DNA from: Aquificota bacterium
Lineage (GTDB): Bacteria; Aquificota; Aquificia; Desulfurobacteriales; DQVG01
Assembly (NCBI GenBank): GCA_027002265.1
Contig: JAMOTM010000071.1
Coordinates: forward strand, 1 to 58,410
Direction of reading: 5' to 3'
DNA: 58,410 nt
Shown: piece after piece, positions 31,006 to 35,937 of the stretch
Layout: each line of letters opens with the position of its first letter
How positions within the stretch are numbered: position 1 is the first letter of the stretch
Position numbers and translations under genes: made by a program
The notes under the pieces: model-generated
What the model saw: the letters and a program-made list of their open reading frames with translations, nothing else
Told to the model about the DNA's origin: nothing
Database searches by the model: none

Positions 31006-32871
31006 CTAATCAACTTTAAGTACACTTAAAAAAGCTTCTTGAGGAAGCTCTACTTTACCTATCATTTTTAATTTTTTCTTTCCTTCTTTTTGACGCTCAA
31101 GTAATTTTTTCTTTCTTGTAACATCTCCTCCATAGCACTTTGCAAGCACATTTGCTCTTAAGGGCGGAATTCTCTCACTTGCAATTATTTTACTTCCAAT
31201 ACCAGCTTGAATATTTACTTCAAAAAGTTGACGAGGTATAACTTCTTTTAATTTTTCAACCAAAGCTCTGGCCCTTTCATATGCTTTACTTCTATGAACA
31301 ATTATAGATAAAGCATCTACTATCTTTTTATTTATATAAACATCAAGTTTTACTAAGTCACTCTTTTTATAACCAATATGCTCATAATCAAAAGAAGCAT
31401 ATCCTTTAGATACGCTTTTTAACTTATCAAAAAAGTCAAAAAGAATCTCTGCCATAGGCATCTCATACTCTAAACATACTCTTTGTTGAACACCTTCCCC
31501 AATATATTCAAATTTTTTAAGCTCTCCTCTTCTATTTTGACAAAGCTCCATAATAGGTCCTACATATTCTTCGGGAGTAATTATAGTAGCCCTGATATAA
31601 GGCTCTTCTATATATAAAATCTTTGAGACTTCTGGCATTTGGGAAGGATTATCTACGTAGAGAATATATTTTTCCTTTTCTTCTTCAGATGCCTTTTCAT
31701 ATCCTCTTAAAATTACTTTATATTTAACAGAAGGAGCAGTTACTATAACTGGAATATTAAAATGTCTTTCTAATCTTTCTCGGATAACATCCATATGTAA
31801 AAGACCTAAAAATCCTACTCTGAACCCAAAACCTAAAGCTGCTGAAGTTTCAGGCTCAAAGGTTAAAGCTGCATCATTTAATTTAAGTTTCATTAAAGCT
31901 TCTTTTAAGTTTTCAAATTGATCAGAATCTATAGGATAAATACCCGCAAAAACCATAGGTTTTGCTTTTCTAAATCCAGGACATGGCTCGCAGGTTGGAT
32001 TTTCAGCATCTGTAATGGTATCTCCCACTTGAGCATCTTCTATATTTTTTATATTTGCTGCAACGTATCCAACTTCCCCAGCTTTTAACTCCTTAAGTTT
32101 TACAGGAAAAGGTCTATTTGTTCCAACTTCCACAACTTCAAAAACTTTATTATTGCTCATAAGTTTTATTTTTTGACCTGGTTTTATAACTCCATCAAAT
32201 ACTCGAATATATAAAACTACACCTTTATAATTATCATAATAAGAGTCAAATATTAAAGCTTTTAAAGGTTTATTTATATCTCCTTTTGGGTGAGGAATTT
32301 TTTTTATGATAGCTTCCATAAGTTTATCTATTCCAATTCCTTGTTTTGCAGATACTAAAATTGCGTCATCTGGATCTAAACCTAAAACCATCAAAATTTG
32401 CTCTTTAACCATTTCTATGTTTGCATTTGGAAGATCAATTTTATTTATAACCGGAATAATTTCCAAATTAGCCTCTAAAGCTAAATAAAAATTTGCAAGA
32501 GTTTGAGCTTCTATTCCCTGAGTGGCATCTATGACAAGCAAAGCGCCTTCACAAGCTGAGAGTGATCGAGAAACTTCATAAGAAAAATCTACATGTCCAG
32601 GGGTATCTATTAAATGAAGAGTATATTCCTTATTATCTTTCGCTTTATATTTCATTTGAACTGCATTTAATTTTATAGTTATACCTCTTTCCCTTTCAAT
32701 ATCCATTTGATCCAAAAATTGCTCTTGCATTTTTCTTTCATCTACAGTCTTTGTATATTCCAAAATTCTATCGGCTAAAGTACTTTTTCCGTGATCTATG
32801 TGAGCAATAATACAAAAATTTCGAATATATTTTTGATACTCATTAGATTTGCTCAAAGCCTTTTCCTCCAT
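31006..32871 (-). CDS. lepA: Elongation factor 4 (LepA), ribosome back-translocase GTPase
   Basis: 621 residues. GTPase motifs: 'AHIDHGKST' near residue 23 (P-loop), a '[12 protein letters not shown]' block near 91 (G3) and 'NKIDLP' near 142 (G4). EF4-specific C-terminal blocks ('GYASFDYE' and the end '[14 protein letters not shown]'-like region) are present. A 15-20 residue N-terminal extension precedes the family start. It lies three bases after the glmU/trpC gene. Confidence 0.97.
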
Positions 32872-32873
32872 TT

Positions 32874-34994
32874 TTAATTTTCAAAAAACTTCTTTGTAAC
32901 CAAAGCTTCTCCAATTAAAAATACGTTAATTCCAAGCGATTGCAAATATCTAATATCTTTTATAGATCTTATTCCACTTTCTGCAACAAAAACAAAGGGT
33001 ATATTTTTTATAATATTTTTTATCTCTTCGTATACCGAAAGATTTGTACTAAAAGTTTTTAGATCCCTGCTATTAAATCCAAGGAAAATAGGAAGATTTT
33101 TTGGAAAAGTATTTAAAACCTCTAAAAGCTCATCTTTACTTGAAACTTCTACTAAGGGAGTTAAACCTTCTTTTATAGCTAAAAGAGAAAAATCTAAGGT
33201 TTTTTCTTTTAAAATTTTATATATAAGTAAAATCATACTTGCTCCAAGATATTTTGCAAGGTAAATTTGATAAATATCAATTACAAAATCTTTAAAAAGA
33301 GCTGGTTTACTAGTAGCTTCACTTACAGTTTTTAAAACACTATAATCTCCAAAGAAAAATGTTTTATCTGTTATAACTGAAATTGCAAAGGGATCTATGT
33401 TTTCTTCATAAAACTTTAAAATTTCTAAGGCAATTTCACTTTTATCTTTTCCCTTTAAAATATCTTTTATAAAAAGGCCTTTGGAAGGCGAACCAAATTT
33501 AATTTCTGCAATAATATTTTCTCTACCGCTTTTTAAATATTCAAAGGGATTTTTTGGAAAAATAGTTTTTGTTTTTTCTATTAAGAAATCTAATGGAAGT
33601 AAATTTTTTAACTCTTTAATTTCTTTTTTCTTTTTATTTACAATTTTAGACAAAATATCTTGAGAAATTTCAAAATGTTTTTTATATCCACCTTTAATAT
33701 TTACTTGAGGAGAACGAGAAATCAAAAGCTCGCCTTCTTTAGAATTTTTTGTAATAACTGAACCTGCAGCAACTAAAGTATTTTCTTCTAAAACTACCGG
33801 GGATACTAAAGTGGTGTTTGAACCAATAAAAGAATTTTTTCCAATAAAACTTCTATATTTTTTAACTCCGTCATAATTACAAACTATAGTCCCAGCTCCT
33901 ATATTTACATTTTCTCCAATATATATGTCTCCAAGATAGGATAAATGATTTGCTTTTGTTCCTTTTGAAAGATAAGCATTTTTTAGCTCTACAAAATTAC
34001 CTACTTTTGTGTCATTTTCTAAATAGGAGTTTGGACGAATACGTGCAAAAGGTCCAATAGTAACGTTATTTTCTATTTTTGCTTTTTCTATATGAGAAAA
34101 AGGTAAAACCTTTACATTTTCTCCAAGTGAGCTTTCTATAATAAATGCAGGTCCATAAATAACACTGTCTTTACCTATTTTGCTATCTATCGTAATATAA
34201 ACGTTTTTTTCATTATAAATACTTACCCCAACTTCAAGCATAAAATAAGTGTTTATTTTTTCTCTTAAAATCTCCTCAGCTTCAACAAGCTCCTTTCTAT
34301 TATTTACTCCTTTTAAAATATCTGAGTTTTCTATAAAAATATCTTTTACTTTTAAACCCTCTTTTTGGAAAATAAAGATAAGATCAGTAATATAATACTC
34401 TTTTTGAGCATTTTCTGAAGATAATTTATCTATAAGCCTTAAAAGAGGTTCTACTTTTATTAAATAAATCCCAGCATTAACTAAATTAATTTTATAAATA
34501 TTTTCATCTTTTATATCTTTTTCTTCTATTATCTTTATAAAACCATTTTTCTTAACTACTCTTCCATAACCGTTTGGATTTTTAAGTTTTACACTAACAA
34601 AACCAAGATCTATATCTTCTTTTAAATTTTCCAAAATTCTTTCTATAGTTTCATCGTCTATAAGAGGCATATCGGCATTTAATACTAAAATGTAATCATA
34701 ATTCCTTAATTTTTCCAAAGATATTTTTAAAGCATGTCCAGTTCCAAGTTGTTCTTTTTGAAAAATGAAATTATTTTCTTTAAAGTTTTTAAAATACTTT
34801 AAAACACATTTTTTTACTTTTTCCGCTTTATATCCAATAACTACGTATATATCTTCAAAAGATAAATTCTTTGATAAAGCATACAAAGGATAAAAAATTA
34901 AAGGTTTAAACAAAACTTCGTGACAAGGTTTTGGATACTCACTTTTAAAACGCGTTCCTTTACCTGCCGCAAGAACTAAAGCTCCTATTTTCAT
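32874..34994 (-). CDS. glmU: GlmU-TrpC fusion: UDP-GlcNAc pyrophosphorylase/GlcN-1-P acetyltransferase joined to indole-3-glycerol-phosphate synthase
   Basis: 706 residues in one uninterrupted frame. Residues 1-440 are GlmU: the uridyltransferase loop [16 protein letters not shown] (8-23), 'LNADMP' (105-110) with the metal Asp108, 'GVNNR' (229-233), then the left-handed beta-helix with 'NHLSYLGD' (349-356, catalytic His350) and '[14 protein letters not shown]' (372-385). Residues about 445-706 are TrpC: Glu497 and Lys499 in '[12 protein letters not shown]', Lys568 in 'FKDF', Glu616 in 'LVEV', Asn641 in 'NSRDL' and Glu672-Ser673 in 'AESGI'. All known TrpC catalytic positions are kept. No linker separates the halves; the GlmU tail '[11 protein letters not shown]' runs into the first TrpC helix. 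It heads the lepA operon. GlmU makes UDP-GlcNAc for peptidoglycan and LPS; TrpC closes the indole ring in tryptophan synthesis. Confidence 0.92.
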
Positions 34995-35372: not shown

Positions 35373-35400
35373 ATTATATATAAAAATTTTTCTGTGTCAA
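35373..35400 (-). promoter_or_regulatory. Consensus sigma-70 promoter of the tRNA pair
   Basis: On the minus strand TTGACA (35395-35400), a 16-base spacer and TATAAT (35373-35378) are both perfect hexamers, with the tRNA-Phe 5' end 29 bases downstream of the -10. Confidence 0.88.
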
Positions 35401-35574: not shown

Positions 35575-35937
35575 GGGGGTGATGTGGGTTCGACGGGAAC
35601 GATGGGCCGCTAAGCGGCAGGCCGGGTTCGCCACCAAACCGTAAAAATGGTGGCAGAAAAACAACTGCCGAAGAAGAACTCGCTCTCGCGGCATAAGAAA
35701 AGATACGCCGCGACGTCCTCTTAAGGCCTGGGGGCGGTCTTAAGAGGGCGTGAGAGGATGCCCCCTAGCCTTGAAGGTTTGTGCCCGACCTTCAAGGTGA
35801 AACTTAAAGGGCACACCCCTTGAACTCTGCCGGCCCACGGGGCAGGTCAAGGGGGATATAAAAACCGTGGGCTAAGCCTGTAGATGCTTAGCGGCTCGCG
35901 TTCTCGGAAGCGGGTTCGATTCCCGCCACCTCCACCA
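35575..35937 (+). tRNA. ssrA: Transfer-messenger RNA (tmRNA, SsrA)
   Basis: 363 nt. The ends form the tRNA-like domain: GGGGGTG pairs with CACCTCC before the encoded ACCA, and the T arm is GCGGGTTCGATTCCCGC. The 'GGGTTCGACGGGAACG' D-loop-like region is typical. Pseudoknot 1 uses GCCACCA…TGGTGGC (around 35629-35653). The tag reading frame starts with resume codon GCC at 35667 and ends TAA at 35694-35696, encoding AEEELALAA, a normal proteolysis tag of the AxxxxALAA kind. The RNA is much richer in GC than its surroundings. It rescues stalled ribosomes with SmpB. It converges with rluD, whose stop lies two bases beyond it. Confidence 0.96.

What the first reader, a model, noticed from the sequence alone, without database searches (positions are those of the whole stretch)
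32874..34994. Continuous GlmU-TrpC fusion
A single frame joins a full GlmU (residues 1-440) to a full indole-3-glycerol-phosphate synthase (about 445-706) with no linker. Catalytic residues of both halves are kept, so both activities should be alive. I know of no such pairing: it couples UDP-GlcNAc synthesis to tryptophan synthesis. GlmU is a trimer and TrpC a monomer or dimer, so the fusion would arrange TrpC domains around the beta-helix. The partner trp genes are not nearby, so this may be how trpC is supplied in this lineage.
Basis: partly seen in the sequence, partly recalled or inferred. Interest (0 to 1): 0.78.

Follow-up and report, generated by a model that had tools for sequence, protein, structure and literature searches.

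The report
GlmU–TrpC fusion from overlapping genes
In one AT-rich bacterium of the phylum Aquificota, two enzymes from unrelated pathways (cell-wall sugar and tryptophan synthesis) are encoded as one 706-residue protein; relatives show that their genes already overlapped and were then joined, which makes it a genuine but probably one-off accident of genome compaction.

Summary
A single 706-codon frame on the MINUS strand (34994→32874) joins a full GlmU to an indole-3-glycerol-phosphate synthase (IGPS/TrpC). Curated models match both halves above cut-off, and the known catalytic residues are kept. It is the genome's only IGPS and only full GlmU, and trpA, B, D, E and F are all present elsewhere, so the TrpC half is very probably working. 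Among 136 Aquificota genomes no other fusion was found. The sister family (Thermovibrio and kin) shows its origin: in all 17 loci examined that hold both genes, glmU is immediately followed by trpC, overlapping by 4–47 nt in different frames. In the window the trpC start codon (ATG/GTG/TTG there) has become CAA, the frames are merged, and no ribosome-binding site remains. The fusion most likely arose from this overlapping pair. Metabolic coupling is not supported. New details: the TrpC half has diverged unusually fast and lost its last helix; the GlmU half lacks one 18-residue β-helix coil. Caveat: one metagenome-assembled genome; the only congener (64% complete) lacks the region. Fusions of a trp gene to an unrelated gene have precedent (trpF–truA).

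The parts
32874..34994 (-). glmU-trpC fused open reading frame, 706 aa plus TAA stop
33675..34994 (-). GlmU half, residues 1-440; E. coli residues R18, K25, D105, N227, R333, K351, H363, Y366, N386, K392, S405, A423, R440 map to identical residues
   Evidence: TIGR01173; alignment to E. coli GlmU chains
33669..33710 (-). junction, residues 429-442 (GlmU C-terminal tail), predicted disordered
33666..33668 (-). CAA (Gln443) at the position of the trpC start codon of relatives (ATG, GTG or TTG in the sister family)
33657..33659 (-). TTG (Leu446), the only in-frame ATG/GTG/TTG near the junction; no Shine-Dalgarno pairing (-0.9 kcal/mol against a gene median of -6.8)
32877..33668 (-). TrpC (IGPS) half, residues 443-706; catalytic E497, K499, K568, E616, N641, R643, S673 kept; last helix (alpha 8) truncated by about 9 residues
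   Evidence: PF00218; alignments; model
31006..32871 (-). lepA (elongation factor 4), its first ATG 2 nt after the fusion's stop; probably the same transcription unit
   Evidence: TIGR01393
35184..35344 (-). tRNA-Phe (35344-35269) and tRNA-Gln (35258-35184) upstream of the fusion, same strand
35373..35400 (-). 12-of-12 sigma-70 promoter-like site (TTGACA-16-TATAAT) upstream of the tRNAs; may also serve the fusion
   Evidence: a consensus match, not proof

Best explanation
This is a real lineage-specific gene fusion. The common ancestor of this order (Desulfurobacteriaceae and the window's own family) probably had glmU directly followed by an overlapping trpC. In the window's lineage an indel or small rearrangement put both in one frame, and the glmU stop and trpC start codons were lost, giving one 80-kDa protein. 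It works as two independent enzymes on one chain: the N-terminal half makes UDP-GlcNAc, most likely as the usual GlmU trimer, and each C-terminal tail carries an IGPS barrel for the indole-glycerol-phosphate step of tryptophan synthesis, whose other genes are scattered through the genome. The join fixes a 1:1 output of both enzymes but need not link the pathways. Shown: frame, domains, residues, sole copy, gene order in the sister family, missing start and ribosome site. Inferred: the ancestral state and the mutational step, activity of both halves, trimer, absence of regulatory coupling.
For: Both halves exceed curated cut-offs. Catalytic residues kept. Sole IGPS in the genome; only full-length GlmU match, the second hit being a weak 28% partial. 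trpA, B, D, E, F present. In 17 sister-family loci with both genes, glmU and trpC overlap by 4, 26 or 47 nt in different frames; in other families of the class the glmU loci read have no trpC beside them. trpC start replaced by CAA, no Shine-Dalgarno. The TrpC barrel models with pLDDT above 90 over most blocks and TM 0.87 to M. tuberculosis IGPS. Contig ends C52/C53 share exactly 127 nt, the mark of a k=127 short-read assembly, in which a false indel is unlikely (the reading of 127 is from general knowledge).
Against: One metagenome-assembled genome only; the congener G001 (64% complete) lacks both halves and cannot confirm it. No reads available. The TrpC half sits on a very long branch (4.28 against 1.12 for the GlmU half), keeps only 44 of 55 near-invariant positions and lacks alpha 8, so reduced activity is possible. 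The window rows are long branches of skewed composition, so their exact place in the trees is not certain.
Confidence: 0.75

Rival explanations
1. Artefact: the true sequence has one more base near 33660-33680, so that glmU ends and trpC starts separately, as in relatives. A start at the out-of-frame TTG 11 nt upstream of Gln443, which has an SD-like AGGTGGA, would then be used.
For: Relatives have separate overlapping genes, many with the same frame offset. An SD-like stretch pairs at -6.7 kcal/mol before that TTG.
Against: Short-read k=127 assembly, few indels expected. The trpC start equivalent is CAA, which one base cannot explain. The SD-like stretch coincides with the GlmU tail motif that is also purine-rich in relatives. 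The only homopolymer of 5 or more just before the junction (A6 at -21) lies upstream of the TTG, so a slip there would not give this arrangement. Not excluded without reads.
Confidence: 0.07
2. The two enzymes are made or end up separate: internal initiation on the mRNA (TTG Leu446 or a rare ATT) or proteolysis in the disordered 429-442 stretch.
For: Disordered junction; a TTG in frame three codons after the old start.
Against: No Shine-Dalgarno at TTG or ATT (-0.9 to -1.7 kcal/mol against a random median of -1.5). No evidence of a cleavage site.
Confidence: 0.12
3. The fusion was selected because it couples or co-localises UDP-GlcNAc and tryptophan synthesis.
For: The gene pair stays adjacent through the sister family although the genes flanking the pair in the window differ.
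Against: The pathways share no intermediate (established knowledge). Overlap of neighbours alone explains the fusion. It occurs in one genome of 136. In the other families of the class the two genes lie apart.
Confidence: 0.06

Closest known systems
Overlapping glmU-trpC gene pair of Desulfurobacteriaceae (Thermovibrio ammonificans and kin)
   Same: Same two genes, order and strand; 38-47% identity of the halves; same junction
   Different: Separate proteins with stop and start codons, overlapping 4-47 nt in different frames
trpF-truA and trpE-PLPDE_IV fusions in the Sargasso Sea metagenome (PMC2395257)
   Same: A tryptophan-pathway enzyme fused to a protein of an unrelated function
   Different: Other trp genes and other partners; neither involves trpC or glmU
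TrpC-TrpF of E. coli (1pii)
   Same: IGPS barrel in a two-enzyme chain
   Different: The partner is the preceding pathway step and IGPS is N-terminal; here IGPS is C-terminal and TrpF is a separate gene on contig C77
Bifunctional GlmU (E. coli 1hv9/2oi6)
   Same: Residues of both GlmU activities and domain order
   Different: One 18-residue beta-helix coil shorter than relatives, with an IGPS domain at the C terminus

Membership tests
GlmU (bifunctional UDP-GlcNAc diphosphorylase / GlcN-1-P acetyltransferase) | Score above the curated equivalog cut-off of TIGR01173 | tested here: met
   454.6 bits against 366.85
GlmU (bifunctional UDP-GlcNAc diphosphorylase / GlcN-1-P acetyltransferase) | Catalytic and binding residues of both domains | tested here: met
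   Uridyltransferase R15, K22, D108, N231 and acetyltransferase R320, K338, H350, Y353, N373, K379, S392, A410, R427 equal those of E. coli (residue list from memory)
GlmU (bifunctional UDP-GlcNAc diphosphorylase / GlcN-1-P acetyltransferase) | Trimer through the left-handed beta-helix | not testable with these tools
   Only monomer prediction offered; beta-helix region of moderate confidence
Indole-3-glycerol-phosphate synthase (TrpC) | PF00218 above the gathering score | tested here: met
   166.1 bits against 27
Indole-3-glycerol-phosphate synthase (TrpC) | Catalytic Glu51/Lys53/Lys110/Glu159/Asn180/Arg182/Ser211 (S. solfataricus numbering, from memory) | tested here: met
   E497, K499, K568, E616, N641, R643, S673; all in columns invariant in A3 (alignments; numbering is shifted by one)
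Indole-3-glycerol-phosphate synthase (TrpC) | Complete (beta-alpha)8 barrel | tested here: inconclusive
   All eight strands modelled at high confidence, TM 0.87 to 3t44, but alpha 8 is about 9 residues short
TrpC-TrpF fusion family | A PRAI (TrpF) domain in the same chain | tested here: not met
   No PF00697 in the chain; TrpF is a separate gene on contig C77
True gene fusion (one translated chain) | No usable separate start for the second half | tested here: met
   CAA at the start position, no ATG/GTG in frame nearby, no Shine-Dalgarno at the only TTG; by sequence only
True gene fusion (one translated chain) | Same fusion in an independent genome of the lineage | tested here: inconclusive
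   The only congener is 64% complete and lacks the region

The most novel reading that the evidence does not exclude
The IGPS domain has adapted to life on the GlmU trimer: it lost its last helix, gained loops and diverged fast because it now folds against, or is regulated by, the GlmU beta-helix, making a trimeric three-activity enzyme unlike any described.
Probability: 0.12. Interest if true: 0.6.

Novelty: new variant of a known kind. Interest (0 to 1): 0.42.

Why it matters
It appears to be an undescribed enzyme pairing and, more usefully, it shows how such a pairing can arise: the sister family keeps what looks like the pre-fusion state, with the same two genes overlapping in shifted frames, and the window shows the merged state with the old start codon erased. 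It warns that fused genes need not mean linked pathways (the 'Rosetta stone' inference), and it explains how this lineage supplies its only IGPS.

Tried and rejected
An automatic alignment of the fused protein with separate GlmU and TrpC rows misplaced the TrpC rows (A1, A2, A4) and was not used; a smaller set, A5, placed them properly and was used for the model. The genome-contig scan with the single sequence found only two distant hits and cannot exclude the fusion in other phyla. A plasmid-collection search found no record covering 80% of the chain. Paper searches for the pairing found nothing relevant. Considered and rejected: a decayed trpC read through from glmU (sole copy, pathway complete, catalytic residues kept); a chimeric assembly join (the same gene order exists in the sister family).

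Full report
WHAT IS THERE. The window holds a single frame of 706 codons on the minus strand, 34994→32874. NCBIfam identifies residues 5–440 as GlmU above the equivalog cut-off, and Pfam identifies 448–701 as indole-3-glycerol-phosphate synthase (IGPS) far above cut-off. The genome (1.39 Mb, 81 contigs, 95% complete) has no other IGPS and no other full GlmU. Its other tryptophan genes are present but scattered: trpA on C66, trpD split by the C53/C52 contig break, trpF on C77, trpE on C79, trpB on C61. A working pathway therefore needs the TrpC half of this protein.

WHERE IT LIVES. Genome G006 of the same order has a chromosome contig of exactly 1,682,965 bp (locus list), the size published for Thermovibrio ammonificans HB-1 (PMC3570795). 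The sister family f2 is therefore Desulfurobacteriaceae and the phylum Aquificota (family and phylum names from general knowledge). The window's own family holds only two genomes, and the phylum set 136.

ORIGIN. In the 17 sister-family loci read that carry both genes, glmU is followed directly by trpC on the same strand, and the two overlap by 4, 26 or 47 nt, always in different frames. In the three other families of the class the glmU loci read have no trpC within the flanks held (mostly 1.5 kb or more), and trpC lies elsewhere. Adjacency is thus a trait of this order, and the fusion a derived step within it. At the junction the sister family reads ATG/GTG/TTG–(Asn/Asp/Thr)–Ile–Leu; the window reads CAA-GAT-ATT-TTG (Gln443-Asp-Ile-Leu). 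Gln sits where the start codon was, no ATG or GTG is near in frame, and the one in-frame TTG (Leu446) lacks any Shine-Dalgarno (−0.9 kcal/mol against a median of −6.8 for 33 genes of the window and −1.5 for random places). Flanking genes differ between the families: the window has tRNA-Phe, tRNA-Gln and lepA, the sister family a NUDIX-like gene upstream and a putative secreted protein downstream (named by eye).

IS IT AN ARTEFACT? Contigs C52 and C53 share exactly 127 terminal bases, the usual signature of a k=127 de Bruijn assembly from short reads, which rarely makes false indels. A single missing base could restore two genes on paper, using an out-of-frame TTG with an SD-like stretch, but that stretch is GlmU tail coding sequence, purine-rich in relatives too, and the lost start codon would stay unexplained. 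The congener G001 cannot decide: it is 64% complete, its contigs around this region are differently arranged or end, and neither half is present. I put the artefact at about 7%.

ARE BOTH HALVES ALIVE? GlmU: all 13 E. coli residues checked are identical. TrpC: Glu497, Lys499, Lys568, Glu616, Asn641, Arg643 and Ser673 lie in columns invariant across 25 sequences (the residue list of IGPS is from my own knowledge; one search's output is shifted by one). AlphaFold2 gives the barrel at pLDDT above 90 over most blocks, with all eight strands, and Foldseek matches IGPS structures at TM 0.85–0.87, rmsd about 2 Å. Residues 410–445 are below pLDDT 50 in the monomer, so the relative placement of the domains is unknown (pTM 0.44).

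AN UNREMARKED ODDITY. The halves differ in pace. Identity to the sister family is 44% for GlmU and 41% for TrpC, while the sister family and family f3 share 45% and 51%. The GlmU half has thus diverged from its sister about as far as more distant families have from each other, but the TrpC half clearly further. Its end branch is 4.28 against 1.12 (long branches, so read with care), and it keeps 44 of 55 near-invariant positions where other families keep 90–100%. It has an 8-residue insert after β1, a 4-residue insert before β6, and ends about 9 residues early, without a full helix α8, 2 nt before lepA's first ATG. The GlmU half lacks 18 residues, the length of one full turn of the β-helix, ahead of the acetyltransferase site. 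Faster change may reflect relaxed demand or adaptation to being tethered; this was not resolved.

HOW IT WORKS. Most likely as two enzymes on one chain, made 1:1, with GlmU trimerising and IGPS barrels hanging from its flexible C-terminal tails. Coupling of the pathways is not needed to explain the fusion and has no direct support. A perfect sigma-70-like promoter upstream of the two tRNAs may drive tRNAs, fusion and lepA together; this is a consensus match only.

NOVELTY. I found no other GlmU–TrpC fusion in 136 Aquificota genomes, in plasmid records or in papers. Fusions of a trp gene with an unrelated gene were reported before: trpF–truA and trpE–PLPDE_IV (PMC2395257). This is a new pairing of a known kind of event. 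Other phyla were not surveyed properly.

Noticed in passing
G013, G019, G021 (genus g7 of the sister family): Three genomes, one of them 99% complete, have neither a GlmU nor an IGPS match, although congeners carry both as overlapping neighbours. Joint loss, replacement or withheld sequence is possible.
   Followed up: partly
window 34130-34150, minus strand: The GlmU half lacks 18 residues present in relatives, the length of one full turn (three hexapeptides) of the left-handed beta-helix.
   Followed up: partly
window 32840-32871, minus strand: lepA's first ATG has no Shine-Dalgarno; a GGAGG just inside it precedes TTG (Leu6), a likelier start.
   Followed up: no
window 35373-35400, minus strand: A perfect 12/12 sigma-70 consensus (TTGACA-16-TATAAT) lies just upstream of tRNA-Phe and tRNA-Gln.
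   Followed up: no
G000 contigs C52 end and C53 start: The contigs overlap by exactly 127 nt inside trpD, so they are probably neighbours and trpD is whole.
   Followed up: yes
window 35575-35937: tmRNA gene (plus strand) with tag AEEELALAA, conserved in G001.
   Followed up: no
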